A model generated the notes under the pieces. It made no database searches, was not told the origin of the DNA, and saw only the letters and a list, made by a program, of their open reading frames with translations. The position numbers were made by a program, and so were the translations under genes. Of a stretch of 64,000 nt of DNA, positions 11,600 to 31,976 are shown piece after piece. The first letter of the stretch is position 1; each line of letters starts with the position of its first letter. Origin of the DNA: Dyadobacter chenhuakuii (GTDB taxonomy: Bacteria > Bacteroidota > Bacteroidia > Cytophagales > Spirosomataceae); contig NZ_CP098805.1 in NCBI RefSeq assembly GCF_023821985.2, forward strand, positions 1,116,001 through 1,180,000, read 5' to 3'.

Positions 11600-13423
11600 A
11601 TGAATATAAATTTCACTTTTTCAGATACCATTGCAGGGTATATCACGGGATATAATGCAGAGGAACGCTGGTTTACCGTGGAGACATCGGACAAGCGTCC
11701 TTTTAAGATCAACCTGATCGCTTCCACCTATGCCCGCGGTGTGCAGAACCTGACAGAAGGCTGGCAGGATCCGGGCGATATCGCTCCGTTTTTGTCTACG
11801 AACGGCCAGTACGTTTTCGCTTACGGAACATTTTATCCCAATGCTGGCGCAGATGAAAGCACGTTTGAAGCGCAGCAGCTGATTTTCCCGGGCAAGGAGC
11901 CGAAAGCCTATCGCCACGAGGAGCAGAATTACTGGATCACGCAGATCAGCTCGATCGCTTCCAGCTATCTGAAATGGCAATTTGATTATCCAAAGGAGGA
12001 GATCAATTACAAAAATTACCGCACAATGCTCCATTTGGGAGGTTCCAAAAAAGGAGATTACTTGCAGGAAACGGACACGATTTCAAGAATGGTTTACGGA
12101 TTTGCGTCAGCTTATCTGTTAACCGGAAAAGACGAATTCCTGGAAGGTGCTGAGCTTGGAACAGAATATCTGCGCGACCATATGCGCTTTTTTGACCAGG
12201 ACGATGACCTCGTTTACTGGTATCACGGCTTGAAAGTGGAAGGCCAGAAAGAAACCAAATTGCTGACTTCGGAATTTGGCGACGACCTGGATTCGCTTCC
12301 TATGTATGAGCAGATCTACGCATTGGCAGGCCCGACGCAAACTTACCGGATCACCGGCGATCAGCGCATCCGTGATGACATTGACAAGACCATTGATCTT
12401 TTTGAAAAATACTTCAAAGACCACGACGGCGAAGGTTATTTCTCACACTTGCACCCGATCACACTGGATGCGCACGAGGAATCTTTGGCACACAATAAAG
12501 CCCGCAAAAACTGGAACTCAGTAGGGGACCACGCACCGGCTTACCTGATCAACCTCTGGCTGGCCAGCGGCGAGCAGAAGCATGCAGACTTTTTGGAATA
12601 TACATTTGACACCATTACCAGGCATTTCCCGGACTACGAAAACAGCCCGTTTGTTCAGGAGAAATTTTTCGAGGATTGGAGCAAAGACCAGACCTGGGGA
12701 TGGCAGCAAAATCGCGCAGTAGTAGGCCACAACCTTAAAATCGCGTGGAATTTGATCCGTCAGCAATCGCTTACTCCGAAAGAAGAATACCTGGCATTTG
12801 CCAAAAAAATTGCTGAACTCATGCCTGCGGCTGGCTCTGATCAGCAGCGTGGTGGCTGGTATGACGTTGTGGAACGCGTGCAGAAAACGGGTGACAAGCA
12901 CCAGTTTGTATGGCACGACCGCAAAGCATGGTGGCAACAGGAGCAAGCGATCCTTGCTTACCTGATCATGTACGGGGTATTGGGCGATGAAGAATATGAA
13001 AAACAAGCGCGTGAGGCGGCTGCATTCTACAATGCATTCTTCCTGGATAATGATGATGGCGGTGTGTATTTCAATGTGTTGGGCAATGGTATGCCGTATC
13101 TTTTGGGAACAGAGCGTTTCAAAGGAAGCCACTCAATGAGTGCATATCACAGCACAGAACTATGCTATTTGTCAGCTGTTTATATCAATTTGCTGATCAC
13201 CAAGCAGCCGACTTATTTCTACTTTAAGCCTTATCCAAACGGCTGGAAGGACAACATTCTGCGTGTTTCACCGGACATTTTGCCTCCTGGAAGCGTGTAT
13301 ATCAGCGAAGTCTTTATTGACGATCAGCCTTACAGCGATTTCGATGCCTACGGACTTACCGTGAAACTTCCTGAAACAGAGGAACGTATCCGCGTAAAAG
13401 TACAGATCAGTTCGGCCAAGTAA
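11600..13423 (+). CDS. N-acylglucosamine 2-epimerase (AGE)-like protein
   Basis: 607 residues, longer than classic AGE/renin-binding proteins (about 400). Residues about 1-120 form a beta-rich extension. Residues about 120-530 show the helical-barrel pattern of the AGE family: ETDTISRMVYGFASAYLLTG, GHNLKIAWNLIRQQ, GGWYDVV, and KAWWQQEQAILAYL, with His and Glu in positions resembling the sugar-epimerase active site. A short C-terminal beta segment follows. The substrate is unknown, and reversible epimerisation or isomerisation of a sugar is inferred. Its neighbours, a STAS gene 28 bases downstream and then glgX, are arranged as I recall for the cyanobacterial icfG cluster, which also has an AGE-type gene next to STAS and glgX. 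Confidence 0.82.
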   Translation: MNINFTFSDTIAGYITGYNAEERWFTVETSDKRPFKINLIASTYARGVQNLTEGWQDPGDIAPFLSTNGQYVFAYGTFYPNAGADESTFEAQQLIFPGKEPKAYRHEEQNYWITQISSIASSYLKWQFDYPKEEINYKNYRTMLHLGGSKKGDYLQETDTISRMVYGFASAYLLTGKDEFLEGAELGTEYLRDHMRFFDQDDDLVYWYHGLKVEGQKETKLLTSEFGDDLDSLPMYEQIYALAGPTQTYRITGDQRIRDDIDKTIDLFEKYFKDHDGEGYFSHLHPITLDAHEESLAHNKARKNWNSVGDHAPAYLINLWLASGEQKHADFLEYTFDTITRHFPDYENSPFVQEKFFEDWSKDQTWGWQQNRAVVGHNLKIAWNLIRQQSLTPKEEYLAFAKKIAELMPAAGSDQQRGGWYDVVERVQKTGDKHQFVWHDRKAWWQQEQAILAYLIMYGVLGDEEYEKQAREAAAFYNAFFLDNDDGGVYFNVLGNGMPYLLGTERFKGSHSMSAYHSTELCYLSAVYINLLITKQPTYFYFKPYPNGWKDNILRVSPDILPPGSVYISEVFIDDQPYSDFDAYGLTVKLPETEERIRVKVQISSAK

Positions 13424-13450
13424 TTTGAACCACATTAAGAAACTATTCAG

Positions 13451-13789
13451 ATGAAAGTTACCATTACGGATCAGGAAGAAATTACGGTGGTTGCGGTCTC
13501 CGGCGATATAGACAGCAAAACGGCGCCCGAATTTGAAAGAAATGCAAAGGTGGCCATGGACAAAAGCAAGAACATCGCGATTGACCTCACCGAAGTGGGC
13601 TTCATGTCCAGCGCCGGGCTGCGCGTATTGCTGATGGTTTACAGGAATATCAGGTCGCAGGAAGGGAAAGTGGTGCTGGTGGGGGTTTCCGAAGAAATCC
13701 AGGACGTCATGTCAACCACGGGTTTTATCAACTTTTTTACGATCGTGGAAAAGCCGGAAGACGGAGTTGCATTCCTAAAACAAGACTAA
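13451..13789 (+). CDS. STAS-domain anti-sigma factor antagonist (first of two)
   Basis: 112 residues of the SpoIIAA/RsbV type. The phosphorylation loop reads FMSSAGLRVL (residues 51-60); by alignment with SpoIIAA (MDSSGLG) the target is Ser54. The N-terminal strand VVAVSGDIDSKTAPEF and the IDLTEVGFM strand are standard. Such proteins are phosphorylated by an RsbW-type kinase and reactivated by a PP2C phosphatase; both are encoded downstream (16478 and 30795). It sits between the AGE-like gene and glgX, three bases before the latter. What it binds in this organism is unknown, since no sigma factor gene is nearby. Confidence 0.92.
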   Translation: MKVTITDQEEITVVAVSGDIDSKTAPEFERNAKVAMDKSKNIAIDLTEVGFMSSAGLRVLLMVYRNIRSQEGKVVLVGVSEEIQDVMSTTGFINFFTIVEKPEDGVAFLKQD

Positions 13790-13792: not shown

Positions 13793-15913
13793 ATGGCAAC
13801 AGATATCAGGATTGATTACTACCCGACGCACGAGCAGCAGGGGATCAAATTCAGAAGGGGACATGCATTGCCATTTGGTGCGACTATGGTCCCTAACGGA
13901 ATCAATTTCAGCATTTATTCCAGCGAAGCTATCGACTGTACACTCGTATTGTTCGAAAGGGGCGAGGCCGAACCATTTGCAGAAATCCGTTTCCCTGAGG
14001 AATTCCGCACGGGCAATGTGTATTCCATGATCGTGTTTGATCTGGATTACGAGCGCCTGGAATATGGTTACCGCATGGACGGCCCGTTCAAGCCCGAAGA
14101 AGGTCATCGTTTCGACAAAAGCATTATACTCAGCGATCCCTACGCCAAAGCCATTGGCGGACGGGATTCCTGGTTGGCCAAGCCGAATTGGGATAACATT
14201 TACCCGTATCGCTCGCGCCTCGTTTTCGAGGATTTTGACTGGGAAAATGACCACCCGCTCGAAACGCCTATTGAGGATCTGGTCATTTATGAAATGCACG
14301 TGCGCGGCTTTACGCAGCATCCGTCATCGAATGTTAAAAATCCAGGCACATTTGCGGCCATCCGTAGCAAAGTGGCTTACCTGAAAGATCTGGGCATCAA
14401 TTGCGTGGAGCTGATGCCGATTTATGAGTTTGATGAATGGGAAAACAGCAAGGAAAACCCGGTTACAGGCGGTCTGATCGTCAATTTCTGGGGTTATAGC
14501 ACGGTTAATTTCTTCTCTCCAAAGGCAGGTTATGCGGCAACAGGGAAGTTTGGCATGCAAGTGGACGAGCTGAAAACGCTTGTGAAAGAACTCCATAAAA
14601 ACGGCATTGAAGTAATGCTGGACGTGGTTTTCAATCACACAGCCGAAGGCGATCACCGCGGTCATACGATCTCTTTCAGGGGAATAGATAACAAAACTTA
14701 TTACATGCTGACGCCTGAGGGTTATTATTTCAATTTCTCAGGAACTGGCAACACATTGAACTGCAACAATCCGGTGGTGCGGAACATGGTTTTGGACTGT
14801 CTGCGTTACTGGGCAGCCGATTACCATATTGATGGCTTCCGCTTCGACCTCGCCGCCATTCTCGGCCGCGACCAGAACGGCGCGCCATTAAGCAATCCGC
14901 CGCTTTTGGAATCGCTCGCTTACGACCCGATCCTTGCCAAATGCAAGCTCGTAGCAGAAGCATGGGACGCGGGCGGATTGTATCAGGTCGGCTCATTTCC
15001 GGCTTACGGACGCTGGGCCGAATGGAACGGAAAATATCGCGACTCGATCCGGAAATTCTTGAAAGGCGACGAAGGCCTGGTTGGAGAAATGGCACAATGC
15101 ATCCAGGGATGGCCAGATTTGTATTACTATCGCGGCCCGACGGCGAGCATCAATTTCATCGCCTGCCACGACGGTTTCACGCTTTATGACCTCTTCGCTT
15201 ACAATGAAAAACACAACGAAGCGAATGGAGAGAATAACAATGATGGTGGTAATGATAATCATTCATGGAATTGCGGCGTCGAAGGTGAAACAGATGATGC
15301 GTACATTAATCAGCTCCGTCACAAGCAGATAAAGAATGCGTTGTCGATCCTGATGGTGAGTCAGGGTGTGCCAATGATCCTTTCGGGCGATGAAGTTGGG
15401 GTTACCAAAAATGGGAACAACAACACCTATTGCCATGATAACGAGCTCAACTGGCTCGACTGGAGCCTGATGGAAAAAAACGCGGATATTTATCACTTTG
15501 CGCAACGCATCATGCGCTTCCGCCGTGCCCACCCGGTACTGAGGAGCAGGACGCATTTCCAGCACAGGGATTACGTAGGAAGCGGTTTTGCGGACATCAC
15601 ATTCCACGGAACCCAAGCCTGGCAACCCGATTTTTCACCCAGCAGCCGCTGCCTGGCATTCATGCTGGACGGCGCCCACGCCAAAAGCGGAACCATTGTC
15701 GACGACTCCATCTACGTAGCGATGAACTCCCACTGGGATGGCCTGTACTACGAACTCCCACCACTCCCGAATGGACAAAGCTGGCACCTGGCCGTGAATA
15801 CGGACATGCCGTCAGGTGAAGACATTTACGAGATCGGCAAGGAGCCGAAATTGGAGGATCAGGGGAGGTTTTTGGTTGGCGGGAGAGCTACGGTGGTGTT
15901 GGTTGGGAAGTAG
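13793..15913 (+). CDS. glgX: Glycogen debranching enzyme GlgX (GH13 isoamylase type)
   Basis: 706 residues, the usual length for GlgX. The N-terminal CBM48-like domain (about 20-130) is followed by a GH13 barrel. The catalytic triad is Asp352 (GFRFDLAAILG), Glu389 (VAEAWDAGG) and Asp460 (ACHDGFTLYD). The region NEKHNEANGENNNDGG is typical of GlgX/isoamylase. It hydrolyses alpha-1,6 branch points of glycogen-like polymers in the cytoplasm. It starts three bases after a STAS gene, so its expression is tied to a partner-switch component, as in the cyanobacterial icfG cluster. It is followed by the second palindromic repeat region. Confidence 0.95.
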   Translation: MATDIRIDYYPTHEQQGIKFRRGHALPFGATMVPNGINFSIYSSEAIDCTLVLFERGEAEPFAEIRFPEEFRTGNVYSMIVFDLDYERLEYGYRMDGPFKPEEGHRFDKSIILSDPYAKAIGGRDSWLAKPNWDNIYPYRSRLVFEDFDWENDHPLETPIEDLVIYEMHVRGFTQHPSSNVKNPGTFAAIRSKVAYLKDLGINCVELMPIYEFDEWENSKENPVTGGLIVNFWGYSTVNFFSPKAGYAATGKFGMQVDELKTLVKELHKNGIEVMLDVVFNHTAEGDHRGHTISFRGIDNKTYYMLTPEGYYFNFSGTGNTLNCNNPVVRNMVLDCLRYWAADYHIDGFRFDLAAILGRDQNGAPLSNPPLLESLAYDPILAKCKLVAEAWDAGGLYQVGSFPAYGRWAEWNGKYRDSIRKFLKGDEGLVGEMAQCIQGWPDLYYYRGPTASINFIACHDGFTLYDLFAYNEKHNEANGENNNDGGNDNHSWNCGVEGETDDAYINQLRHKQIKNALSILMVSQGVPMILSGDEVGVTKNGNNNTYCHDNELNWLDWSLMEKNADIYHFAQRIMRFRRAHPVLRSRTHFQHRDYVGSGFADITFHGTQAWQPDFSPSSRCLAFMLDGAHAKSGTIVDDSIYVAMNSHWDGLYYELPPLPNGQSWHLAVNTDMPSGEDIYEIGKEPKLEDQGRFLVGGRATVVLVGK

Positions 15914-16038
15914 CGCCCCTTCGGCGGTGGGGCTAGCAGTAGCGCCCCTTCGGCTCCGCTCAGGGTGACAGTGCTGGTTGTACGACGGTACTGGTTAGCA
16001 AAAGCGGAACGCCCTGTCAGCCTGAGCGGAGACGAAGG
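15909..16038. repeat. Palindromic dispersed repeat, copy 2, with a short direct repeat
   Basis: A 17-base direct repeat (AGTAGCGCCCCTTCGGC at 15909-15925 and 15938-15954) overlaps the glgX stop. A larger inverted repeat follows: 15947-15971 pairs with 16014-16038 (25 bases, two mismatches) around a 42-base loop. Its core is the same CTCCGCTCAGGGTGACAG found at 11487-11552. It fills most of the 231-base gap between glgX and the next STAS gene and is probably an intergenic mobile-type repeat. Confidence 0.8.
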
Positions 16039-16144: not shown

Positions 16145-16465
16145 ATGGCATTTCAAATAGAATCCTTAATAGAGAATCAGGAGGCGCGGTTTACATTGCA
16201 TGGTGAGCTGGATTCGCTTTCGGCGCGGGTGTTTCAGACCGAGATTGAGAAAATTGCAAATCAGCCGATCGATTCGTTGGTGCTTGATATGGAGGACCTT
16301 AAGTTTATGTCCTCTGCCGGGCTCCGCGTTTTGATTTACTCAAAACAAAAAATCGGGCCGAAATTATCCATTTACATTGTGAAACCCCAGGAACTGATCG
16401 TGGACACGCTTACCAAAACGGGTCTGCAGCACAGCGTTACCATCGTTGATCAATATCCAGTTTAA
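16145..16465 (+). CDS. STAS-domain anti-sigma factor antagonist (second)
   Basis: 106 residues of the RsbV/SpoIIAA type. The loop FMSSAGLRVLIYSK places the predicted phospho-acceptor at Ser57. It is clearly related to, but distinct from, the STAS protein at 13451, so two antagonists share one predicted kinase and one predicted phosphatase. It is 12 bases upstream of the RsbW-like gene, the classic antagonist-kinase order. A new transcript may begin in the 231-base gap upstream, though no clear promoter was identified. Confidence 0.92.
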   Translation: MAFQIESLIENQEARFTLHGELDSLSARVFQTEIEKIANQPIDSLVLDMEDLKFMSSAGLRVLIYSKQKIGPKLSIYIVKPQELIVDTLTKTGLQHSVTIVDQYPV

Positions 16466-16477: not shown

Positions 16478-16903
16478 ATGGAATCGAAAAGTTTTCCCGG
16501 CACTGTTGATTCTCTCGATTCGCTGCGGGAATACATTGGTGAGCTCTCGGAAAAGGCTGGTTTGGCCAAAAAACCAACTTACAGTCTCAAACTGGCGGTT
16601 GATGAGATTGCTACGAACATCATTTTGTATGGTTACCAGGAACCAGGGATCGAAGCGGATTTTCAGGTGGTGAGTGAAATCATGCCTGATAAGCTCGTGG
16701 TGATCCTGGAAGACATTGCCGCGCCGTTTGACCCGCTCGCGAAAGACCTGCCCAATGCGCAGGACCTGACGCTTTCGCTGGAAGAACGCGGCATTGGAGG
16801 TCTTGGTATTTTCCTGACAATCAATGGTGTAGATGAGTTTTCCTATGAATATGCCGATGGAAAGAACCGTAACAAATTTGTAATGAAAATTGCCGCAACC
16901 TGA
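16478..16903 (+). CDS. RsbW-like serine kinase / anti-sigma factor (HATPase_c_2)
   Basis: 141 residues with a GHKL ATPase fold. The N box is LKLAVDEIATNIILYGYQ (Glu43 and Asn47). The next box reads EDIAAPFDPL, with Ala where many relatives have Gly, and the ATP lid is ERGIGGLGIFLTI. Proteins of this type phosphorylate STAS antagonists on Ser and bind a sigma factor or another partner when free. It lies between its probable substrate (16145) and the nSTAND ATPase gene. The binding partner is not evident in the window. Confidence 0.9.
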   Translation: MESKSFPGTVDSLDSLREYIGELSEKAGLAKKPTYSLKLAVDEIATNIILYGYQEPGIEADFQVVSEIMPDKLVVILEDIAAPFDPLAKDLPNAQDLTLSLEERGIGGLGIFLTINGVDEFSYEYADGKNRNKFVMKIAAT

Positions 16904-16908: not shown

Positions 16909-19900
16909 ATGGTTGAGAATTCTACTGTTACCAATCCATTTCCCGGCCTTAGAAGTTATGATTATGACGATCATGCTCTATTCTTCGGCAGGGACGCGCA
17001 CATCCGGGAGTTGAAAAACAAACTCCTGGACGGGCGTTTTCTTGCGTTGATCGGATCCTCGGGAAGTGGTAAATCTTCTTTAATCAAAGCGGGCCTCATT
17101 CCATCGCTGGAACAAGGCGAGGCGGCAGACCGCTGGGCGGCAGACCGCTGGGCGGCAGACCGCTGGGCGGCAGGCCGCTGGAAAGTGATCATTTTCCGGC
17201 CGGGGGGAAATCCCGTGCGAAATTTCGTAGAGGCCCTGAAAGTGGCCCTGCGGGACATCGATCCGCTTTGGGACAGCCGCGATCCATTGGCTGTGGAAAA
17301 AGAACTTAGCAGAGATCCCAAAGTTGCCTTAACATTGCTTTCGGCGATCCGTGACCAGAAAATTCTGCTGGTGATCGATCAGTTTGAGGAGCTGTTCCGC
17401 TATGAGCTTTCGGAAGATTTTTCGGGTAAAAACAGAACCAATGCATTTGTAAAACTGCTGTTGACCCTCATTAACCAGCGTGAGCTTCCGGTGCACGCGG
17501 TGATCACGATGCGGTCGGACTACTTGGACCATTGCACGGAATTCGACGGCCTGACCGAGATCATTAACAAGGGCTATTATCTGCTTCCGAAAATGAACCC
17601 GGAGGAAGTAAAGCAAGTCATTGTGGGGCCTGTTGAGTCGGTGGGCGCCAGCATTGAGCCTGAACTTGTTGCAGGTTTGCTTAAAGAATTGGCGGATAAC
17701 CCGGATTTTCTGCCCATTCTGCAACATGCATTGATGCGCACCTGGGATCGCTGGAAATCGACCAAACCATTCTCGTCTCCCGTTTCGGGTGTTGATTATG
17801 AAGCCATTGGCGGCATGCAGGAGTCGATCACCATGCATGCGGAGGAAATTTACACGCAGCGGCTGGATGAAAAAAGGCGGAATGCAGCAGCCAAACTTTT
17901 CAAATCCCTCATTGTCCTGGGCCCCAGCGACACCTCCTCGCTGCACCCGACCGTCTTGCGCGAGATCATCCAGATCACCGGCATTCCCGATTATCTGCTG
18001 ATCGACGTCATCATGGTTTTCCGCGAAAATGGTGTCTCTATCCTGACGCCAAAACCAGGCGTAAAGATCGATCACGACTCGATCATTGATGTTTCGGTTG
18101 AAAAAGTACTCACATTCTGGGAGCGGTGCAGAAAGTGGATAGAAGAGGAGCTGGAATCTGCAAAGCTTTACAAGCAGCTCAGTTACTCGGCTTCACTTTA
18201 CCAGGAAGGCCGTACAGGACTTTGGGTTAATCCCGAGCTGCAACTGGGACTTAAATGGCTGAAAGAAAGCGAGCCGACTTTGGAATGGGCGCAGCGCTAT
18301 GATCCGTTTTTCGAACGTGCGACCAATTTTTTAGATTACAGTAAAAAACAATACGAACTGGAAGTTCGTCAGAAAGAAGACCGCCAGAAACGCGAGCTGC
18401 GCAAAGCCAGAATATTCGCTTCGGTGCTCGGGATCAGCTCATTAGTATCATTACTATTTTTGATTGTTGCACTTGTGTTGCGCACGCAGGCACAGCAGAG
18501 TGAGAAAACGGCCCTGGAAAAGGAAAGCCTGGCATTGGAGGAACGGAAACGGGCTGAGGATCAGACACGTGAAGCCATTGCGCAAAAGAAAATCGCAGAG
18601 CAGCAAGGCACATTTGCCGAGCTGCAGAAGACATTAACCGAAGAACAAAAAGGCATTGCGGTAAGGGAACAGGAGAAAGCCGTGAAAGAGAGCATTGCCG
18701 CAAAAATCGCCAAGCAAATCGCTGAGGAACAAAAGATCCAGGCCGATAATGCCAGAAAAGCAGCGGTCGAATCTCAGAAACAAACAGAAATTCAAAAAGA
18801 ATACGCGGTAAGCGCACAGAAAGAGTCGGACAGGCAAAAAGTGTATGCGCAATCGGCCCAGAAAGAAGCAGAAAGCTCCCGGAATGATGCATTGAAACAG
18901 CGCTCCAAAGCAGTGGCCCGCTTCATTGCGATCCAGTCCTTTCAAATGCCGGCCGGGGATGAACTGACTGCATTACTGGCTTTGAAAGCATATGATTTTA
19001 ATATAAAAAATGGCGGGGAACGCGAGAATCCGGATATTTTTAATGCACTATCCAAAGCGGCGGGCGCGAAGGCAACATTAATTGCACATAATGACATTGT
19101 GCGCGTCGTCGCCGAGCCGCAAGCCGGCAATTCGGTTTTCGCAACGGCAGGGGACGATGGTGTGGTCAGCCTCTGGAATTATCTCACGCCTGCGGCCAAG
19201 CCGCTTTTGCTGCGCAATCCGAAGCAAACCTTCAAAAGCATTCGTTCCGTCGCGTTTACGCCTGACGGAAAAACGTTTTTTACGGGCTCGTCCAATGGTC
19301 AGATCGTCCGCTGGGACAATTTTATGCCGGGCGTGCCGCCTGCTAAAACCATCGTAGGGCATGACGGCATCGTGTTTTCGCTGACGGTGAAGAACATTAA
19401 TAACAGGCCGCATCTGCTCTCTGTAAGTTCTTCCGGGCAGGTGAGGCTTTGGGATGTGAGCGACAAAAAGCTGGATGTCGTGAGAAATATCAATGTCGGC
19501 ACCGAGATCGCCTCAGTTGAAATACTGGCTGACGGCCAGTATATGTTCCTGGCAACCGGAACGGGCAAGCTCATCCGTGTGGACCTGACCAAACCGGATG
19601 CAAAACCGGCAGAATACAATCTCCCCGGCATCCGCGGCAGGCTGCTATCAATGGCATTCACGCCTGATCAGAAGCATTTATACTTCGGCACCAGCTCGGG
19701 AATGCTTTACAATGTGCGCATGAACAATAACGAGCCCGTTCCAAACTCAATGAACGGAACACAGGGAACGCACACTTCGGGCATAACCAGCATTGCTTTC
19801 GCGCCGGACGGAAGCCGCATTGCCACTGCTTGCTATGACTGGAAAATACGCATCTGGAATGCAAAAGAAGATATTTCCAAACAACAGCCTGTATTATTGA

Positions 19901-23354: not shown

Positions 23355-26201
23355 GTGAAAAAAATCAAGGACATATCGCGGATGCTCAACATCAGAAAGG
23401 ACGAGGAAAGCCTCGTGAGCCTGCTGATGGCCTATTCTTTTTTTATGGGCGGAGCAACGGCATTGTTCTACACTGTGGTGGCTTCGTCGTTTCTGATGAG
23501 TTTCGATCGCTTAATGTTGCCACAGGTTTACGTGGTCGGCGGCGTTTTCGTTTACCTGCTAGGGTTGGGCTTAACCCGCATTCAAAAACGCATTCCTTTT
23601 AATCGGTTAGGCGAAAATGCATTGCTTTTCCTGATCGTCTCCATCGCCGTTTTCCTGGTCATTTATCATCTTACAGGCAGTAAGTGGGTTTTCTTTTTTC
23701 TCTTTATCTGGAACCGGATTTTTGTTCTGGTCAATGGTGTCACGTTCTGGGCAGTGGTTGTGAAGCTGTTTAATTTTCAGCAATCCAAAAGGTTATCCTC
23801 GCTCATCAACAGCGGAGAAGTTTTTTCCTCTGTCATTATGTATCTGGCAGTTCCGGCCCTGGTCAAGATTTTGCCGATCGACTCGCTACTGATCCTGGCT
23901 GTTGGTTTCCTGATCGTCTGCGCCGTTTTATTGAGAAAAATTCACAAACGTCACGTAACAACGGACCACACACGCATTGAAATAAAACCGAAACCAGCCG
24001 AGCATTTGGCGACGGATGCTGTGGATCCCAAATATTTTCGCAACATTTTCCTGCTCGCATTGCTGCCCGTTTTCGCTTTGTTTTATGTTGAATATATTTT
24101 CTTCACTGAGTCGCGTAATGTGTTCCCGAACAAAGAATCGCTGGCCAGCTTTCTTGGATTTTTCTTTGGTATCAGTGCCATTCTTGAATTTTTTATCAAA
24201 ACATTTTTCTACAATAAGCTCATCAGCAAATATGGCTTGAAGCTAGGCATTCTGATCCTGCCTTTGAGCCTCGTTTTCAGCTTTGCCGTTTCTGTGATCT
24301 ATGGTTTGGGTTATGACACGGCGGCCATCTTTTTTGCCTGCATTGCGCTTTCCCGGTTTTTCATGAGTGCTGTTCGCAAGGCCATTGCTGAGCCGGCATA
24401 CCAGGTTTTATATCAGCCCATTCAGGCGCGTTTCAGACTGAATGTCCAGGGCCGGATCGAAGGCCGGGCCAAGGCGATGGGTGGTTTGGCGGCTGGTGTT
24501 CTGCTTTTTGTGCTGGTCAACATTTCGCGGATGGACGCCTTGCAGCTTGCAATTTTGTTTTTGGTGGTGGCAGTTTGCTGGACGTTTGTGGCATTCGTAG
24601 GGGAGAACTCTTACAAAAAAATGGTGCGCGACAAGATTTTTAATTTCCCCGAAAAATCGAAGAAAAACGCTTCCTATACACCAGGGCAGGCTATTTCTGA
24701 AAAGCCATTTGAACAACTTATTAACCAGATATTTTCACCCAAAGAAGAAGACCGCATTGAAGCGGCGCTGGGACTGGGCGCCACGAACCGGTTCCTGTCG
24801 TACAAATATCTCATTCCATTGTTACAGGATCCCAACAAACGGGTGCGTGAAGCGGCCATATACACGGCAGGCGAGTTGAAAAGGGCAGAGCTGTGGCCAT
24901 TTTTAATGGAGCAAATGGAGACCGATCGTTACTTTACCGTTGCTTTCGATGCGCTGGTGAAGTCGGGACCGCCTTTGTTGAAATACATTGAAAAATCATT
25001 TTTAAGCAATGAGGATAACCGTTACCGGCAGCTGCATTTGCTTAAAATCGTGGAGCAGATCGGTGGTCCGGAAGCGATCCGGTTTTTGCGCAGAAACCTG
25101 GAAAATCCCAACCGTTTTGTAAAAGACAAGGTGCTGGAAGCATTGCGGAACCTGCGTTACACCTGCAACACCACGGAGCAAACATTCATGCTGAACGAGC
25201 TGGACGAACATCTGAAAACGTTCGCCTGGCTGCTCTCGGCGCAGCACGATCTTTCGGATGCCTATGAGCCGGAAAGCCAGCTGATGCTGAATCTGGAGCG
25301 GGAGAGGATGCGGATCATGCGTAAAGCTTTCATTGTTCTGGAAGCCGTTTATGGCTCCCGTTTTCACGCCGTAACATTGCTCAAAGGCGATCAGGCAACC
25401 GATGCACGCGACTACCTGACCGAGATCTGTGACCTGCTTTTGCCCGAAAACATTAAAAACAAAGTCCTGCCATATCTCGATAGCGACTCGCTGGACGAAA
25501 TGCGCCGCCGCTATGCGGAAATTTACCCGCTGGCAACATTGTCCGTGGAAGAGCGTCTGATCGACATTATTAATAAGGATTACACCAGGATTTCGCGCTG
25601 GACGAAGGCGGTCGCGATCAAAGAGTTGCGCCATTTTGATGCCGGAATTGTGACGCCTGTGCTGGTTGCCAATGCGGTTTCCAGGTCTAAGATTATTTCT
25701 GAAACATCATTTTACGTCCTCCGAATTGTAAATCCGGCCCGTTTCCGCTCCTTAATGGAAGCAATGACCAGGAAAAATGATGCTTTTCACATTGAAATCA
25801 TGAAGCCGCTTGAATGGCTTTCGACCGAAGAAGATCTGCTTGTTTCCAAGCTCCGCCGCCTGCGCGAAACGCATGCATTAGGCGGACTGCTAAGCGGGGA
25901 GTTGCAAAAAGTGCTGCTGACTTCGGCCTACTTCCAGGAAGAGAGCGGGGAAGTGGTAGATCTGCGGAAACAACTCAGCGACGGCGACGTTTCCATCCTT
26001 GTGACTTATGGTAAATTGTTTTTCTCTAAAATCGGCGCAATGGAAGCCGGTAACATCCGCAATGTGGCGGAACTGACGGCAATGGGTGTGGCTATGATCC
26101 CAAATGTGCTGGAAGACACGGAGTTCTATATCATTGAAAATTTTCTTTTAAAAGATCTTAATATCAGGCAAAATGTGGAGGAAAGTGTTGAGATCCATTA
26201 A
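23355..26201 (+). CDS. Multi-spanning transporter-like protein with C-terminal HEAT-like repeats
   Basis: 948 residues starting at GTG (23355) with AGGAG nine bases upstream. Residues about 20-430 hold some 10-12 membrane helices in an MFS or ATP/ADP-translocase-like arrangement (for example FFLFIWNRIFVLVNGVTFW). From about 455 the protein is soluble and helical with HEAT-like units (EDRIEAALGLGATNR, PNKRVREAAIYTAGELKR, PNRFVKDKVLEALRNL). The last 100 residues may be a small beta domain of the kind that follows HEAT repeats in NTP/NDP-exchange-type proteins; this is tentative. Transport substrate unknown. Its end overlaps the next gene by 29 bases, indicating coupling to the sensor kinase. 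Confidence 0.8.
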   Translation: MKKIKDISRMLNIRKDEESLVSLLMAYSFFMGGATALFYTVVASSFLMSFDRLMLPQVYVVGGVFVYLLGLGLTRIQKRIPFNRLGENALLFLIVSIAVFLVIYHLTGSKWVFFFLFIWNRIFVLVNGVTFWAVVVKLFNFQQSKRLSSLINSGEVFSSVIMYLAVPALVKILPIDSLLILAVGFLIVCAVLLRKIHKRHVTTDHTRIEIKPKPAEHLATDAVDPKYFRNIFLLALLPVFALFYVEYIFFTESRNVFPNKESLASFLGFFFGISAILEFFIKTFFYNKLISKYGLKLGILILPLSLVFSFAVSVIYGLGYDTAAIFFACIALSRFFMSAVRKAIAEPAYQVLYQPIQARFRLNVQGRIEGRAKAMGGLAAGVLLFVLVNISRMDALQLAILFLVVAVCWTFVAFVGENSYKKMVRDKIFNFPEKSKKNASYTPGQAISEKPFEQLINQIFSPKEEDRIEAALGLGATNRFLSYKYLIPLLQDPNKRVREAAIYTAGELKRAELWPFLMEQMETDRYFTVAFDALVKSGPPLLKYIEKSFLSNEDNRYRQLHLLKIVEQIGGPEAIRFLRRNLENPNRFVKDKVLEALRNLRYTCNTTEQTFMLNELDEHLKTFAWLLSAQHDLSDAYEPESQLMLNLERERMRIMRKAFIVLEAVYGSRFHAVTLLKGDQATDARDYLTEICDLLLPENIKNKVLPYLDSDSLDEMRRRYAEIYPLATLSVEERLIDIINKDYTRISRWTKAVAIKELRHFDAGIVTPVLVANAVSRSKIISETSFYVLRIVNPARFRSLMEAMTRKNDAFHIEIMKPLEWLSTEEDLLVSKLRRLRETHALGGLLSGELQKVLLTSAYFQEESGEVVDLRKQLSDGDVSILVTYGKLFFSKIGAMEAGNIRNVAELTAMGVAMIPNVLEDTEFYIIENFLLKDLNIRQNVEESVEIH

Positions 26202-29200
26202 GTTACTAATCATTCTGATCTGTCTGACCGGCTCGGAAAAGCTTTGGGCACAGCTTGCAAATGTGGCAAAGCCGGACGTGGGAAGGCCATTGTCGGGCTA
26301 TTATTCTTCTGCCGAATATCGTGCACACGACCAAAACTTCGCCATAGCCCAGGACAGGGCAGGCATGATGTATTTTGCCAATTTTGCGGGGGTACTTGAA
26401 TTTGACGGCGTGGAGTGGAAAACGATCCAGACAACAAATATCACACGCGTATCGGCCCTGGCAACGGACGCAAAAGGCCGGGTGCTTGTAGGAGCGAACG
26501 GAGAATTCGGTTATCTGGGCAAGGACGCTTTCGGTGTTCAGCGGTTTGTGGATCTGTCAGTAAAACTGAAAGAAAATTTTGGACAAATTATTCAGATTAT
26601 CCCTACCAAAGCCGGCGCTTGGTTTGTAACGGATCAGATCAACTTTTTTTGGAATGGCACAACGGTGAAGCCATTCAAGCACAACCTGAAAATCCAGGCG
26701 GCATTTTCCTTCAAAGAGGAAATGCTGGTTTATGCAAAAAATAAAGGGATGATTCGGATCAATGGTGATCAGATCTCCCAAATCGAGCAAAATAGTGACG
26801 TGCCTGCTTTGCTGGACCTTACGTCGGTGGTACAGCTTGGGGATGGTTCTGCGCTTCTGGTAACAACAAGTCAGGGCATTTTTAAATTAAAAAATAACCG
26901 CATTGAGGTCATTGGCGGCAATGTGAATCCCGTGATTGTACGCAATCAGGCAACTTATGCAACCAAATTACAGGATGGAACAATTGCGATCAGCATGGCA
27001 ACGGGCGGCATGCTGGTGGCGAATGCGGACGGAAATGTGCAATATCCTGTGGCAGCCGATACGGATTTACAGGAAACGCAAGTGTCGGCCATGTTCACCG
27101 ACCGTGAGCACAATCTTTGGGTTGCGCTCAACGACGGTATCGCCCGCTTCGACCTGCCTTCACCGATCTCACTTTTTGACAGCAGGGATGGTCTGAGAGG
27201 TTCCGTAACTGCTATCCGGCGGTTTCAGGGACGGGTTGTGATAGGCACATTGAACGGATTATATTATGTAGAAAACAACCAGATCATTCACGTCAACGGC
27301 TTTTCCGGAAGCTGTCTGGGCCTGGATGAAGCGAATGGCACACTATATATTGCTTCAAACAAAGGGCTTTTTCAATGGACCAAAGGCTCGGGAATTTCAA
27401 GAATAAATTCGGTTTTTTCACTGAGCGTAACGGCTTCAAGCACTGGTAATGAGCTCTTTGTTGGCTTGCAAGACGGCTTAACAAAGTTAACGCGGGCAGG
27501 CAGCGAATGGCGGACGGAGCGGGTAAAGGCAGTTAACGAACAAATAGTAGGCGCTACCGAATCCTCCCCATCGACTTTCTGGCTCGAAACACTTTCCAAT
27601 GGCGTTATAAAGCTGGATGGGAAATCAGGAACCATTAAACGATTTTCTGCTGCCCAAGGCATTTCCAGCCCATTATACAACAAACTGTCTTTGTATGAAG
27701 ACAAGTTAATAGTCTCCAATAAGGATGGCCTGTTCGAGTATCAGCCTCAGTCGGACCGTTTTACCCGTGCGATTTGGCTGCATGCAGAAAAGACCTGGTT
27801 TGATCGTGTGCAAGGGGATGACAAGGCCAATGTCTGGACCACACGCGGCGACAAAAAATCAGCATCATTTTTCAAGAAAAAACCTTCCGGCGACTTCGAA
27901 CTGCTGGAAACACCATTGATGCCCATCGCGGACGTTCCGTTTGAGATCATTTTTCCGGATGAAAATGGCAGCGCCTGGCTGGGCGGAGATCAGGGGCTCT
28001 TCCGGCTCGACATGCGGGTGCCGGACCAATATGTCTATGAATATCCGGTCATGCTGAGGAGTGTTGCCACGCAGGATAGTCTGCTGCAATTTGCACAAAA
28101 CGGAATGATTAGCAAGCCTCTCAGCCACCGTCAGAATAATCTGATTTTTGAGTTTGCATTACCGAGTTATCACACGAATCAGGAGGTTCAGTACCAATAT
28201 TTTCTTGAAAATTATGACAAAGAATGGTCTGACTGGGGACCGCTGACGCGTAAGGAATACAGCGGCTTGCCGTCGGGAAGTTACAATTTCAAAGTACGGG
28301 CAAGGGATGTTTATGACCACGTTTCAAAGGAAACATCATTGGCCTTTAAGATCCGCGTGCCCTGGTTCAGACAGTGGTATATGATCGCCTTGTACCTGAT
28401 CTTATTCGGGGCCATGATCTACTACGTGGTCCGCTGGCGGTTGAGAAGAATTTTGAGAGAAAAGGAAGAACTGGAAACGCGGATCCTGGAACGTACGGAA
28501 GAGGTTGTGAACCAGAAAGAAGAACTGGAATTGCAATCCGAAGAACTCTCAGCAACCAACGATCAGCTTGAAAGGATCGATGAGTTTGTGAAATCAATTA
28601 ATGGCGAGGTAAATACGGGGCGGCTGTTCCAGCTGGTTTTAAACAAATTATGCGAATTTCAAAACGTCAACGGAGCGTCTGCACTCGTTTATAACGCCGC
28701 GACCGACAATTATCAATTTATAGCGCTGGCGGGCGCTGTAGAAACTGCCAATGTAGAAGATGTCAGACTGACGGCTCAGGAAGCTGAGCAGCGGTATATC
28801 GAAAATGGCGAAGAAATTTTAGAAGATATTTTCCTTAAAAATGATTTTCGAAAGCAAAACGCCAATGCGTCCATCAGTGAGATTTTTTCTCCTAAGGCAC
28901 TCATTACGATCTTGATACGGGTTGACGGTGTGGTGAAAAGCTACATTACGCTGGAAAATACGGACCGTGAAAATGCATTTTCGGAGCGGGATTTCAATGT
29001 CGTTAAAAACCTGAAAGAGCATTTGATTGGGGCTTATATTAAAACAAACATTCTTGAAAATCTTGAAAATACATTGTCCAACCTGAAATCGACGCAGGAA
29101 GAACTGATCCGGCAGGAGCGGCTGGCCTCGGTGGGTAGCCTTACCAAAGGGATTGTGGACAGGATTTTAAACCCGCTGAACTACATTAACAATTTCTCGC

Positions 29201-29886
29201 AATCGTCCGGGAAGCTTTTAAAGGAAATTACAGAAGTCACTGACAAGCACCAGGATGGCTTGTCGGAAGATGAGAAGGATGATCTGGACAGTGGTTTCAG
29301 TATGCTTCAAAAAAACCTGGAAAAGATTTATGAACATGGCAACAGCACAACGCGTATCGTAAAGGATATGCAAAAGTTGCTGAAAGGAAAATCGAGCGAT
29401 TTTATCATTACAGAATTGAATCCTTTCCTGGAAGCAAAGGCCAAAACCGCCATTCAGGAAGCGCTGGCCGAATATAAAGATGCATCCGTAAAGCTGGATT
29501 TGGCTTTAAATGGCAATCCGGTTAAAGTCAGTGTGCTGCCTTATGAATTTGCACAGGTGATCACGAACCTGATCAGCAATGCCTGCTATGCCTTGCTGGA
29601 AAAGGCCAGGATCGATAAAACATTTGAGCCTCAGATCATTATCTCGTCTAAGCTGGTAGAAAGCGGCGTTTGCATTACCGTACGTGATAATGGGAAAGGC
29701 ATTCCGGCCAAAGAGCAGGAGCAGCTGTTTAACCCATTTTTTACAACAAAACCTACGTCCAAAGGAACCGGGCTGGGCTTATATATGAGTAAGGACATTA
29801 TTGAGTATCACAAAGGGCGCATGTCGGTAAATTCATTGGAAGGGGTGTTTACCGAAATAGAAATTTTCCTGCCGGTTGTTGCTTAA
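26173..29886 (+). CDS. Periplasmic beta-propeller sensor with GAF and kinase-like domains; phospho-His replaced by Asp
   Basis: 1237 residues: signal peptide (ending KLWAQ), two-component-regulator propeller repeats (about 40-650; VGANGEFGYLG, NLWVALNDGIARF, SAWLGGDQGLFRL), a Y_Y_Y domain (about 655-725), one membrane helix (about 732-757), coiled coil, a GAF-like domain (about 810-945), a HisKA-like region and a GHKL ATPase (about 1095-1237; NLISNACYALLEKA, DNGKGIP, GTGLGLYMSK). The HisKA motif, GILHEIKNP in the neighbouring kinase, reads GIVDRILNP here, so residue 996 is Asp instead of His. It probably cannot autophosphorylate in the normal way. It may control the small kinase encoded 30 bases downstream, perhaps as a heterodimer. 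No receiver domain is present. Confidence 0.88.
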   Translation: MWRKVLRSIKLLIILICLTGSEKLWAQLANVAKPDVGRPLSGYYSSAEYRAHDQNFAIAQDRAGMMYFANFAGVLEFDGVEWKTIQTTNITRVSALATDAKGRVLVGANGEFGYLGKDAFGVQRFVDLSVKLKENFGQIIQIIPTKAGAWFVTDQINFFWNGTTVKPFKHNLKIQAAFSFKEEMLVYAKNKGMIRINGDQISQIEQNSDVPALLDLTSVVQLGDGSALLVTTSQGIFKLKNNRIEVIGGNVNPVIVRNQATYATKLQDGTIAISMATGGMLVANADGNVQYPVAADTDLQETQVSAMFTDREHNLWVALNDGIARFDLPSPISLFDSRDGLRGSVTAIRRFQGRVVIGTLNGLYYVENNQIIHVNGFSGSCLGLDEANGTLYIASNKGLFQWTKGSGISRINSVFSLSVTASSTGNELFVGLQDGLTKLTRAGSEWRTERVKAVNEQIVGATESSPSTFWLETLSNGVIKLDGKSGTIKRFSAAQGISSPLYNKLSLYEDKLIVSNKDGLFEYQPQSDRFTRAIWLHAEKTWFDRVQGDDKANVWTTRGDKKSASFFKKKPSGDFELLETPLMPIADVPFEIIFPDENGSAWLGGDQGLFRLDMRVPDQYVYEYPVMLRSVATQDSLLQFAQNGMISKPLSHRQNNLIFEFALPSYHTNQEVQYQYFLENYDKEWSDWGPLTRKEYSGLPSGSYNFKVRARDVYDHVSKETSLAFKIRVPWFRQWYMIALYLILFGAMIYYVVRWRLRRILREKEELETRILERTEEVVNQKEELELQSEELSATNDQLERIDEFVKSINGEVNTGRLFQLVLNKLCEFQNVNGASALVYNAATDNYQFIALAGAVETANVEDVRLTAQEAEQRYIENGEEILEDIFLKNDFRKQNANASISEIFSPKALITILIRVDGVVKSYITLENTDRENAFSERDFNVVKNLKEHLIGAYIKTNILENLENTLSNLKSTQEELIRQERLASVGSLTKGIVDRILNPLNYINNFSQSSGKLLKEITEVTDKHQDGLSEDEKDDLDSGFSMLQKNLEKIYEHGNSTTRIVKDMQKLLKGKSSDFIITELNPFLEAKAKTAIQEALAEYKDASVKLDLALNGNPVKVSVLPYEFAQVITNLISNACYALLEKARIDKTFEPQIIISSKLVESGVCITVRDNGKGIPAKEQEQLFNPFFTTKPTSKGTGLGLYMSKDIIEYHKGRMSVNSLEGVFTEIEIFLPVVA

Positions 29887-29916
29887 TACGCTAAATGCTG
29901 CAAATTTTTAATTACC

Positions 29917-30753
29917 ATGACTATGGGAGCCGGAACGACGGAACAAGACATTGAACTGTATCAGCAAAAGATCATTGAGCTCAACAAGCTCGCTGAAATA
30001 GGACAACTGAGTGCAGGTATTTTACATGAAATAAAAAATCCGGTGAGTTTTGTCAATAACTTTTCCCGACTTTCGCAGGGATTGGTGAGCGAGATACTGG
30101 ACATTTGCCAAAGACCGCTGTCCGAAATGACCGAGACGGACATCGCCGATGAAAAAGATCTGCTGGAAACGCTTTCGCAAAACCTCATCAAGATCAACGA
30201 AAACGGCAAACGCATTGAGCGGATCATACAGGGAATGCTCGCACAAACCCGCTCCGACGCTGCTATCCTGGAACCCACAGACCTCAACCAGCTGCTTGAA
30301 GAATACAGCAAGCTGGCTTACCAGGGCGTCCGGGCAGAGGACATTGCCTTCAATGTAATGCTCAAATTTAACTTCGATCCTGAGATTGGCTGCGTGAAAG
30401 TGGCGAAAGGGGAGTTTGGTCGGGTGATTGTGAACCTGGTCAATAATGCGTGCTATGCGGTGAATGAAAAGTCGAAGCGGCAGGCGGAAGGCTATGAACC
30501 TGTCATTGAGATTACAACATCCAGAATTGGCCAGGAAGTGGAAATTAAAATTTGCGATAACGGCATCGGCATTCCGGAAGACATTGTTGCCAAGCTTTTT
30601 AAGCCGTTCTTTACAACAAAACCGCAGGGAAAAGGGACAGGACTGGGCTTATCGCTCACGTACACCAGCGTGACGGACACGCACAAAGGAAGCATTCATG
30701 TAACCTCTGTGGTCGGCGAAAAAACGGAGTTCACAATTGTGATTCCCGGTTGA
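29917..30753 (+). CDS. Soluble sensor-less histidine kinase
   Basis: 278 residues starting MTMGAGTTEQDIELYQQ; the second Met at residue 3 is an alternative start. A short coiled coil leads to HisKA with His37 intact (LSAGILHEIKNPVSFVNNF), then a GHKL ATPase (LVNNACYAVNEKSK, DNGIGIPEDI, GTGLGLSLTYTSV). There is no membrane helix and no sensory domain. The catalytic domain is close in sequence to that of the upstream propeller protein, suggesting common descent and possible heterodimerisation. It probably phosphorylates the receiver-PP2C protein encoded next, 41 bases downstream. Confidence 0.92.
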   Translation: MTMGAGTTEQDIELYQQKIIELNKLAEIGQLSAGILHEIKNPVSFVNNFSRLSQGLVSEILDICQRPLSEMTETDIADEKDLLETLSQNLIKINENGKRIERIIQGMLAQTRSDAAILEPTDLNQLLEEYSKLAYQGVRAEDIAFNVMLKFNFDPEIGCVKVAKGEFGRVIVNLVNNACYAVNEKSKRQAEGYEPVIEITTSRIGQEVEIKICDNGIGIPEDIVAKLFKPFFTTKPQGKGTGLGLSLTYTSVTDTHKGSIHVTSVVGEKTEFTIVIPG

Positions 30754-30794
30754 GATTTATTTAAAACAGATATCAATTTAAAAAATTATAGATA

Positions 30795-31976
30795 ATGGCT
30801 ATCAGAATATTAAGTGTAGATGACGAGCAGGATATGGAGATGCTGATTCTTCAATTGTTCCGAAAGCAGATCCGGGATAAGAAATACGAATTTGTGTTTG
30901 CTAACAACGGCATTGAAGCATTGGAGCGGCTGGAAGAATCTGATGACATTGCACTTATACTATCCGACATTAACATGCCCGGCATGGACGGTCTTACGTT
31001 TCTGTCGAAGGTAAATGAGAAGCAAAATCCGTTGCTGAAATCGATCATGGTTTCTGCTTACGGCGATATGGACAACATCCGGACGGCTATGAACCGCGGC
31101 GCTTTCGACTTTGTGACCAAGCCAGTGAATTTTGAAGATCTGGAAATTACCATTTCCAAAACCGTGGAGCACATTGAAATGCTGGCCAGCCTGGAAAAAG
31201 GCCGCGAGCAGTTGATCGCTATCCAGAACGATCTGAGCGTTGCTAAGGAAATTCAAATGTCCATGTTGCCGAAAACGGTCCCGGCCAACATTGGCAAAGC
31301 GGGGGTGGATCTGCATGCATTTATTCATCCTGCAAAAGTGGTCGGCGGAGATTTGTACGACTACTTTATGATGGATTCCGAGCGTCTGTTTTTCATGATC
31401 GGTGATGTCTCGGATAAGGGCGTGCCGGCAGCATTGTTTATGGCGATCAGCAAGGCGATTTTTAAGAGCCAGTTTTCCAACCGCAATGGTGATTCGATCA
31501 CGGAGAAAGTAAAGATTGTGAATGAGTTTCTGAGTGAGGACAATTCTTCATATATGTTCGTTACGGCCTTTGTTTGTATATTAAATGTCAAGACAGGCGT
31601 TGTTGAATATGTAGATGCCGGCCACGAACCGCCCGTAATCATTCGCGCCAATGGTGAAACCGAGCTGGTCAAAAAGGAGGGAGGCATGGCCTTGTGCTTC
31701 GACCCGACATTCGAATTCGAATCCCATACTTTAACATTGAACCCGGGAGACAAATTCGTCCTCTACACCGACGGCGTCACCGATGCCAATAACCTGGCAG
31801 GCGCACGGTATGGCCTGCATTATCTGCAAGATTTCTTCACAACAGGCGAAGGCTCTACCAAGGAAACCGCCAAAGAAATGAACGAATCAACATTAGAAAG
31901 CCTGATAGATTTCATCGGAGCCGCAACGCAATTCGATGACATTACCATGCTTTCGCTGCGGTATATGGGGAATTGA
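30795..31976 (+). CDS. Receiver-PP2C (RsbU/SpoIIE-type) serine phosphatase response regulator
   Basis: 393 residues. The receiver domain (1-125) has VDDEQD and phosphoacceptor Asp58 (LILSDINMPGMDG), followed by a coiled-coil linker (about 130-165) and a PP2C/SpoIIE domain. Metal-binding and core motifs are present: GGDLYDYF, GDVSDKGVPAALFM, DAGHEPP, YTDGVTDA, QFDDITML. Its role is inferred as phosphorylation-gated dephosphorylation of the STAS proteins at 13451 and/or 16145, countering the RsbW-like kinase. It plays the part of IcfG in the cyanobacterial cluster, although the domain layout here has a receiver. It ends six bases before the convergent glycogen synthase gene. Confidence 0.93.
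   Translation: MAIRILSVDDEQDMEMLILQLFRKQIRDKKYEFVFANNGIEALERLEESDDIALILSDINMPGMDGLTFLSKVNEKQNPLLKSIMVSAYGDMDNIRTAMNRGAFDFVTKPVNFEDLEITISKTVEHIEMLASLEKGREQLIAIQNDLSVAKEIQMSMLPKTVPANIGKAGVDLHAFIHPAKVVGGDLYDYFMMDSERLFFMIGDVSDKGVPAALFMAISKAIFKSQFSNRNGDSITEKVKIVNEFLSEDNSSYMFVTAFVCILNVKTGVVEYVDAGHEPPVIIRANGETELVKKEGGMALCFDPTFEFESHTLTLNPGDKFVLYTDGVTDANNLAGARYGLHYLQDFFTTGEGSTKETAKEMNESTLESLIDFIGAATQFDDITMLSLRYMGN

What the first reader, a model, noticed from the sequence alone, without database searches (positions are those of the whole stretch)
11600..31976. An icfG-like carbon-control partner-switch cluster in a Bacteroidota genome, expanded with new sensor parts
The sequence shows, on one strand, AGE-like protein, STAS, GlgX, STAS, RsbW-like kinase and, at the far end, a receiver-PP2C phosphatase. 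From memory, the Synechocystis icfG cluster (about slr1855-slr1861) has AGE-type, STAS, GlgX, STAS, PP2C (IcfG) and RsbW-like genes, and coordinates inorganic-carbon and glucose use. Finding the same unusual mix in a probable heterotrophic Bacteroidota suggests transfer or an ancient shared module that controls glycogen or sugar metabolism. Here it has gained an nSTAND-WD40 ATPase, a TonB receptor, a GNAT enzyme, a transporter-HEAT protein and two kinase-like proteins between the RsbW-like and PP2C genes.
Basis: partly seen in the sequence, partly recalled or inferred. Interest (0 to 1): 0.88.

Follow-up and report, generated by a model that had tools for sequence, protein, structure and literature searches.

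The report
Travelling icfG-type glycogen control module
A gene block that pairs glycogen-sugar enzymes with a protein-phosphorylation switch, known from cyanobacteria, sits in the same order in a Dyadobacter-like bacterium and on plasmids of unrelated phyla, and because some relatives fuse one switch protein to the sugar enzyme, the switch is likely to control that enzyme directly.

Summary
In detail: AGE, STAS, GlgX, STAS, RsbW-like kinase, then nSTAND-WD40, TonB receptor, GNAT, MFS-HEAT, two kinase-like proteins and a receiver-PP2C phosphatase lie on one strand. The interpretation largely holds. AGE-STAS-GlgX-STAS is collinear in 15 of 31 cyanobacterial loci (Calothrix brevissima has the full Synechocystis order) and on Deinococcus and Streptomyces plasmids. 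STAS1 and STAS2 are separate lineages across phyla, so the clusters are homologous. AGE (61-69%) and GlgX (67-71%) are more alike between phyla than RpoB (52-53%), and AGE of Bacteroidota groups with a subset of cyanobacteria, so transfer is likely; GlgX alone does not decide. The extra genes are collinear in 19 of 19 family genomes read in full. RsbW occurs in 26 of 27 family genomes with AGE and in none of 123 without. New here: (1) elsewhere STAS2 is fused to the C-terminus of AGE; (2) 20 of 20 carriers tested have a single sigma factor with region 3, so no group 2/3 target; (3) the propeller kinase has Asp for the phospho-acceptor His in 21 of 21. I infer that the epimerase is a direct output of the switch. 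Binding and phosphorylation are untested.

The parts
5453..7979 (+). ThiJ/DJ-1-like protein (5453-6280) and TPP-dependent enzyme (6270-7979), extended module
   Evidence: Pfam; the same pair lies upstream of the module on Runella, Deinococcus and Streptomyces plasmids and in Aphanothece L092
8006..11486 (+). GMC oxidoreductase, h141, SnoaL, DJ-1/PfpI, VOC (glyoxalase-like), extended module
   Evidence: Pfam; a DJ-1 match in 41 of 50 stretches laid out, 70-73% identical in cyanobacterial L092, L130, L135
11600..13423 (+). AGE-type sugar epimerase/isomerase, 607 aa
   Evidence: PF07221; model of a fused homologue has the AGE fold; His311, His377, His439, His517 present, the matching columns invariant in 70 of 70 aligned sequences
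13451..13789 (+). STAS1 (anti-sigma-antagonist type), Ser54 predicted phosphosite
   Evidence: PF01740; own lineage across phyla
13793..15913 (+). GlgX glycogen debranching enzyme, D352/E389/D460
   Evidence: TIGR02100; motif positions (catalytic role recalled)
16145..16465 (+). STAS2, Ser57 predicted phosphosite; relative of the AGE-fused STAS domains
   Evidence: PF01740; 26 of 26 sampled fused tails nearest STAS2
16478..16903 (+). RsbW-like serine kinase; only short stand-alone HATPase_c_2 match in the genome
   Evidence: PF13581; genome scan; family profile
16909..20121 (+). nSTAND1-WD40 ATPase
   Evidence: PF20703 plus WD40; collinear in family
20123..22750 (+). TonB-dependent receptor (start revised)
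   Evidence: PF00593, PF07715; signal-peptide-like start judged by eye
22767..23351 (+). GNAT acyltransferase (start revised)
   Evidence: PF00583; start judged by eye
23355..26201 (+). MFS-like transporter with HEAT repeats
   Evidence: PF13646 above cut-off, PF07690 below cut-off
26173..29886 (+). Two-component propeller plus Y_Y_Y plus HATPase protein with Asp996 in place of the phospho-acceptor His
   Evidence: Pfam; H-box alignment, Asp in 21 of 21
29917..30753 (+). Histidine kinase with intact H-box (GILHEI)
   Evidence: His in 21 of 21
30795..31976 (+). Receiver-PP2C (SpoIIE) phosphatase; receiver Asp58, metal-site-like Asp186/204/326/382
   Evidence: residues (metal role recalled)
31983..33797 (-). 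Glycogen synthase (PF05693), convergent
   Evidence: same place in the 9 genus mates read and in G171, not found downstream in the 9 other family genomes read

Best explanation
This is a homologue of the cyanobacterial icfG cluster that likely moved between phyla, and its STAS-kinase-phosphatase switch is predicted to act directly on the AGE-type sugar epimerase (and perhaps GlgX) rather than on an alternative sigma factor. Shown: shared gene order, separate cross-phylum STAS1 and STAS2 lineages, conserved kinase, phosphosite and phosphatase motifs, co-occurrence of RsbW with AGE, fusions of STAS2 to AGE in relatives, and absence of a second sigma factor with region 3. Inferred: the RsbW-like kinase phosphorylates STAS1 Ser54 and STAS2 Ser57. 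The propeller protein, which lacks its own phospho-acceptor His, would signal through the neighbouring histidine kinase to Asp58 of the receiver-PP2C, which would dephosphorylate the STAS proteins. Dephosphorylated STAS2 would then bind AGE, and STAS1 perhaps GlgX, setting glycogen/sugar turnover when an outside sugar is sensed and imported through the TonB and MFS proteins.
For: Order AGE-STAS-GlgX-STAS in 15 of 31 cyanobacterial loci, with RsbW in 13 and PP2C in 13 of those 15, and on one Deinococcus and two Streptomyces plasmids. STAS1 one side of a branch at 99, fused tails one side at 99, STAS2 between. Fusion: 109 of the 120 listed hits carry both the AGE and the STAS model (my count of the table); fused loci in cyanobacteria, one Bacteroidota genome (L099) and one alphaproteobacterial plasmid (L114, weak); 26 of 26 sampled tails (11 loci, 15 of 118 listed proteins) nearest STAS2. 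Minimal locus L136 keeps AGE-STAS2-RsbW-PP2C without a GlgX or STAS1 match in its 20 kb. RsbW in 26 of 27 AGE carriers and 0 of 123 others. One Sigma70_r3 protein in 20 of 20 carriers tested. Transfer: AGE tree; RpoB identity lower than AGE and GlgX; plasmid-borne copies.
Against: In Synechocystis the corresponding kinase Slr1861 was shown to be an anti-SigC factor (PMC12329169), so a transcription target is the only one with experiments that I found. A fused STAS may be a structural or oligomer domain. No complex was modelled: pTM 0.88 of the fused monomer is not an interface score. Ser is kept at the phosphosite in 78 of 118 fused tails, so fusion does not plainly remove phosphorylation. The GlgX tree does not reject a cyanobacterial clade, and the AGE grouping that was rejected was named after a first tree had been seen. 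L119 has an unfused AGE within the fused group.
Confidence: 0.5

Rival explanations
1. Homologous and transferred icfG-type module whose switch output is transcription: RsbW is an anti-sigma factor for RpoD or for one of the many ECF sigma factors, and the enzymes are merely in the same operon.
For: Slr1861 of Synechocystis binds and inhibits SigC (PMC12329169). G000 has 43 Sigma70_r2 matches, 41 over the cut-off, so ECF-type targets exist. In Chlamydia, RsbW is modelled to sequester the primary sigma factor (passage).
Against: Only one Sigma70_r3 protein in 20 of 20 carriers tested; no sigma family among the Pfam matches of the block's scanned ORFs; STAS2 fused to the enzyme in relatives.
Confidence: 0.3
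2. The switch output is the nSTAND-WD40 protein: free RsbW or STAS gates this scaffold ATPase, and the enzymes are downstream clients.
For: The WD40 gene follows RsbW by 5 nt and is collinear in every family genome whose fetched stretch reaches it.
Against: No WD40 match follows RsbW in the cyanobacterial, Deinococcus or Streptomyces stretches; only weak WD40 matches elsewhere in L098, L117 and L128. So it cannot be the general output.
Confidence: 0.12
3. Vertical inheritance of an ancient module with massive loss, rather than transfer.
For: Presence is patchy (12 of 148 Bacteroidota, 27 of 150 in the family, 19 of 244 cyanobacteria), which loss could also give; the GlgX tree does not reject a cyanobacterial clade.
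Against: AGE tree rejects a cyanobacterial clade (p 0.0022); AGE and GlgX are more alike than RpoB; plasmid copies.
Confidence: 0.07
4. Independent assembly of common families without shared origin.
For: Each family is common alone.
Against: Position-specific STAS1 and STAS2 lineages shared by four phyla and the same order throughout.
Confidence: 0.01

Closest known systems
icfG gene cluster (slr1852-slr1862) of Synechocystis sp. PCC 6803
   Same: AGE-type epimerase (Slr1855), STAS (Slr1856), GlgX (Slr1857), STAS (Slr1859), PP2C (IcfG, Slr1860), RsbW-like kinase (Slr1861), per passages of PMC8670252 and PMC12329169; the window has the first four in that order plus kinase and PP2C
   Different: PP2C lies about 14 kb beyond RsbW and carries a receiver domain; six genes between; no SigC-type sigma factor found in the genome; probable heterotroph. 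Synechocystis itself was compared through the papers and Calothrix, not by its own sequence
SigB/Rsb and SpoIIAA-AB-E partner switches of Bacillus (recalled, and in part PMC12329169)
   Same: Kinase, STAS antagonist and PP2C phosphatase families
   Different: No sigma match in the block, one Sigma70_r3 protein in the genome, enzymes interleaved with switch genes
AGE superfamily epimerases (D-mannose isomerase 5x32, cellobiose 2-epimerases, Runella glucose 2-epimerase 8h1l)
   Different: Only 13-18% identity; about 100-residue N-terminal beta-rich part in the model; partnered with or fused to STAS

Membership tests
icfG-type cluster | AGE-STAS-GlgX-STAS collinear on one strand | tested here: met
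   same order in named Calothrix brevissima NIES-22 (L091) and others
icfG-type cluster | STAS1 and STAS2 orthologous to the cyanobacterial positional equivalents | tested here: met
   STAS tree (quick method, 119 columns; few)
icfG-type cluster | RsbW-like kinase next to STAS2 | tested here: met
   12 nt from STAS2; 40-51% identity to cyanobacterial module kinases, 33% in L128
icfG-type cluster | PP2C phosphatase adjacent to STAS2/RsbW | tested here: not met
   PP2C is in the same co-directional run but about 14 kb downstream, with a receiver domain. Cyanobacteria vary: before RsbW in L091, L125, L126, L129; after it in L122, L127, L128, L130, L131, L133, L139; upstream of AGE in L123, L124; none found in L092, L134
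icfG-type cluster | SigC (group 2 sigma factor) as target | tested here: not met
   only one Sigma70_r3 protein in G000, in a 287-aa open frame taken to be RpoD
icfG-type cluster | Kinase phosphorylates both STAS proteins; PP2C reverses it | not testable with these tools
   motifs present; needs biochemistry
SigB-type partner switch | cognate alternative sigma factor encoded with the kinase | tested here: not met
   no sigma family among the Pfam matches of the block's scanned ORFs; one Sigma70_r3 protein in genome
AGE superfamily | AGE fold and conserved histidines | tested here: met
   the fold was modelled on a fused homologue (62% identical to the window's AGE), and the catalytic role of these His is recalled

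The most novel reading that the evidence does not exclude
A mobile metabolic partner switch: a phosphorylation-controlled STAS protein is the regulatory subunit of a sugar epimerase, carried between phyla by plasmids (full switch in four phyla, the fused GlgX-AGE::STAS form in a fifth), with the sigma-factor role in Synechocystis a secondary, local use. In Spirosomaceae it is driven by a propeller sensor that has lost its phospho-acceptor histidine and must work through a partner kinase.
Probability: 0.38. Interest if true: 0.87.

Novelty: new variant of a known kind. Interest (0 to 1): 0.74.

Why it matters
How the icfG cluster links signalling to carbon and glucose use has been studied since the 1990s (1994 and 1999 papers cited in PMC12329169) and its outputs are still only partly known. 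The same module in bacteria in which I found no SigC-like factor, and the natural fusion of STAS2 to the epimerase, make a direct enzyme target testable in simple binding and activity assays. It would show partner switching, usually taught as sigma-factor control, working on metabolism. The plasmid-borne copies show a signalling-plus-metabolism unit kept together in four phyla, and a fused form in a fifth.

Tried and rejected
GlgX as a test of transfer: inconclusive. Palindromes in the two gaps before AGE and STAS2 looked module-specific, but 32 exact copies of a 17-base core occur genome-wide: ordinary dispersed repeat. Anti-phage defence for the nSTAND protein: only a weak PADLOC hit (mad3, E 7e-5, 28 residues): not pursued. 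PDB sequence search for the MFS-HEAT protein found only designed HEAT-type repeats. Rfam (gathering threshold) and tRNA scans of the window: nothing. Structure search of the fused model says nothing on the N-terminal and STAS parts, since the AGE domain fills the list. RpoB: one of the 8 genomes (G319) gave no match, so six cyanobacteria were compared; their C-terminal RpoB pieces alone are 58-61% identical, the N-terminal pieces 41-43%.

Rows and items dropped. Of 80 cyanobacterial loci, 32 were given to and 30 were held. Of 20 plasmid records, 10 were read. Of the 26 AGE carriers other than this genome, 19 were read over the whole block; G245 and G197 were read in part, G160, G233 and G285 end early, and G178 and G210 were not fetched (G210's coordinates equal those of the Runella rosea plasmid, which was read). 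AGE quick tree: L103, L126 (near-copies) and L138, L139 (AGE in two ORFs) left out, 64 rows kept. AGE careful tree: 19 of those 64 left out as long or near-identical, 45 kept; the tested grouping (cyanobacteria plus the alphaproteobacterial row) was named after the quick tree was seen. GlgX tree: 9 loci left out, 37 rows kept. STAS tree: rows of 9 loci left out, 74 kept. In one search one STAS2 motif (L116) was misread by my pattern; one search shows LSSAGLR there.
Full report
What is there. The block is longer than stated: from 3756 to 31976 it is one co-directional run with short gaps. Upstream of AGE it holds SnoaL-type proteins, a ThiJ-like protein, a TPP enzyme, a GMC oxidoreductase, DJ-1 and a VOC protein. 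A glycogen synthase lies convergently at 31983-33797 and a phosphoglucose isomerase at 37141-38790. The genome (6.08 Mb, 2 contigs) is Dyadobacter-like: a protein 90% identical to AGE is named Dyadobacter.

Gene order elsewhere. AGE was sought in 148 Bacteroidota genomes (12 with a match at E 1e-20, 4 of them strong, including this one), in 150 genomes of the window's family (27 with a match), in 30 named cyanobacteria (8) and in 244 cyanobacteria (19 at E 1e-60). In plasmid records 20 match, 17 of them over at least 80% of the query, including Runella, Nostoc, Gemmobacter, Deinococcus and Streptomyces; I read 10 of them. I laid out 50 stretches with tblastn. Of 31 cyanobacterial loci, 15 have AGE-STAS1-GlgX-STAS2 collinear (in L139 with AGE in two pieces), RsbW is found in 13 and PP2C in 13 of these 15, and Calothrix brevissima NIES-22 (L091) has the full Synechocystis order AGE, STAS, GlgX, STAS, PP2C, RsbW. 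The other 16 are: 9 loci with GlgX before an AGE that is fused to STAS and with no RsbW or PP2C match in the stretch, one such locus without fusion (L119), three with a distant AGE (L097, L098, L140), and three partial ones (L113, L136, L138). Deinococcus sp. KNUC1210 and two Streptomyces plasmids have AGE-STAS-GlgX-STAS followed by kinase and PP2C genes; in Streptomyces further alpha-glucan genes lie beside them. A Gemmobacter plasmid has the GlgX-AGE::STAS form, and another Streptomyces plasmid (L120) has AGE-GlgX with a STAS gene on the other strand. Deinococcota and Chloroflexota also hold this AGE type (names only, context not read).

Homology and transfer. On a quick tree of STAS domains, STAS1 lies on one side of a branch (99) and fused tails on one side (99), with STAS2 between (only 119 columns). 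So positions, not just families, correspond across phyla. On the AGE tree 15 Bacteroidota rows join 5 cyanobacteria (100/98) and leave the other cyanobacteria elsewhere; the one Bacteroidota row outside is the fused L099. A tree with the cyanobacteria (plus the alphaproteobacterial row) together is rejected (p 0.0022), though that grouping was named after a first tree. GlgX does not reject a cyanobacterial clade (p 0.178). RpoB of this genome is 52-53% identical to that of six of those cyanobacteria over the three aligned pieces (51-54% in the central one, 58-61% in the C-terminal one, 41-43% in the N-terminal one), against 61-69% for AGE and 67-71% for GlgX in the same six genomes. Transfer is likely; direction and time are not shown.

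The expanded part is old. In 19 of 19 family genomes read over the whole block, and on a Runella rosea plasmid, WD40-TonB-GNAT-MFS/HEAT-propeller kinase-kinase-PP2C follow RsbW in the same order, with GNAT missing in one (G176) (stretches). Seven further carriers were not readable or not fetched over the whole block. The glycogen synthase follows convergently in the 9 genus mates and in G171 but was not found downstream in the other 9; on the Runella plasmid a glycogen synthase lies about 12 kb upstream of AGE.

The kinase belongs to the module. The window's RsbW is the only short stand-alone HATPase_c_2 match in the genome (the other 12 matches lie in open frames of 298 to 1397 aa). Over the same draw of 150 family genomes (same handles listed), RsbW was found in 26 of 27 AGE carriers and in 0 of 123 others (Fisher p 3e-28, which ignores shared ancestry). 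The one miss, G285, is 83% complete and its contig ends inside GlgX.

The input arm. The propeller protein has Asp where the H-box His should be (GIVDRILNP) in 21 of 21 sequences (this one, 19 family genomes, the Runella plasmid), although the whole proteins fall to 38% identity; the next kinase has His in 21 of 21, and the receiver Asp and PP2C Asp motifs are kept in 21 of 21. So the propeller protein is probably a sensor that signals through the second kinase to the receiver-PP2C. This is inference.

Against this reading. Ser at the phosphosite remains in 78 of 118 fused tails; STAS fusion may be structural; a sigma target such as RpoD or an ECF factor is not excluded.

Literature. Synechocystis operon slr1852-1862 with Slr1855 epimerase, Slr1856, GlgX and IcfG: PMC8670252 (passages). 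Slr1861 as kinase of Slr1856 and Slr1859, IcfG acting on Slr1856 only: PMC12329169 and PMC11619594 (passages). slr1853/slr1854 annotations: PMC3564720 (passage). In the held open-access library, searches for icfG with Bacteroidetes (none), N-acylglucosamine 2-epimerase with STAS domain (none), GlgX/STAS/epimerase/antagonist (three papers, one of them PMC8670252), partner switching with RsbW and Bacteroidetes (one paper on a Vibrio stressosome, listing only), RsbW with Bacteroidota (one paper on acid stress, listing only) and partner switching with enzymes and glycogen (three papers, listing only) showed no report of this module in Bacteroidota or of the fusion. Subscription papers were not searched.

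Noticed in passing
window 11487-11552 and 15947-16038: Two palindromes with 28-nt arms in the gaps before AGE and before STAS2; a 17-base core occurs 32 times in the genome, often as inverted pairs, so a dispersed REP-like repeat.
   Followed up: yes
window 26173-29886: Propeller histidine-kinase-like protein with Asp996 for the phospho-acceptor His, conserved in 21 of 21 homologues: a conserved pseudo-kinase next to an intact kinase.
   Followed up: partly
L113, L115, L116, L121: A MinD/ParA-family gene follows the module in Nostoc, Deinococcus and Streptomyces plasmids (40-44% identity to the Streptomyces NBC_00334 protein in the other phyla); not seen in the window's block. Role unknown.
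   Followed up: no
L115 13863-15563: RsbW and PP2C appear to share one open frame (573 aa) in Deinococcus sp. KNUC1210, although the record's gene list shows only the PP2C.
   Followed up: no
L101 (Bacteroidota genome G094): Distant Bacteroidota with a rearranged set: AGE beside an MFS-HEAT protein, then STAS, ThiJ-like, PP2C, RsbW, h141, STAS, GlgX.
   Followed up: partly
L136 and L137 (cyanobacterial genome G449): One genome holds both a minimal split module (AGE-STAS2-RsbW-PP2C) and a GlgX-AGE::STAS fusion locus.
   Followed up: no
L093, L094, L096, L117, L118: A histidine-kinase-like gene (27-33% to the window's HK) lies downstream of the fused AGE::STAS gene; in L117 and L118 a FAD-dependent oxidoreductase sits between.
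   Followed up: no
L138, L139: AGE gene in two separate ORFs in two cyanobacterial genomes.
   Followed up: no
window 37141-38790: Phosphoglucose isomerase gene about 5 kb past the block, another sugar-phosphate gene near the module.
   Followed up: no
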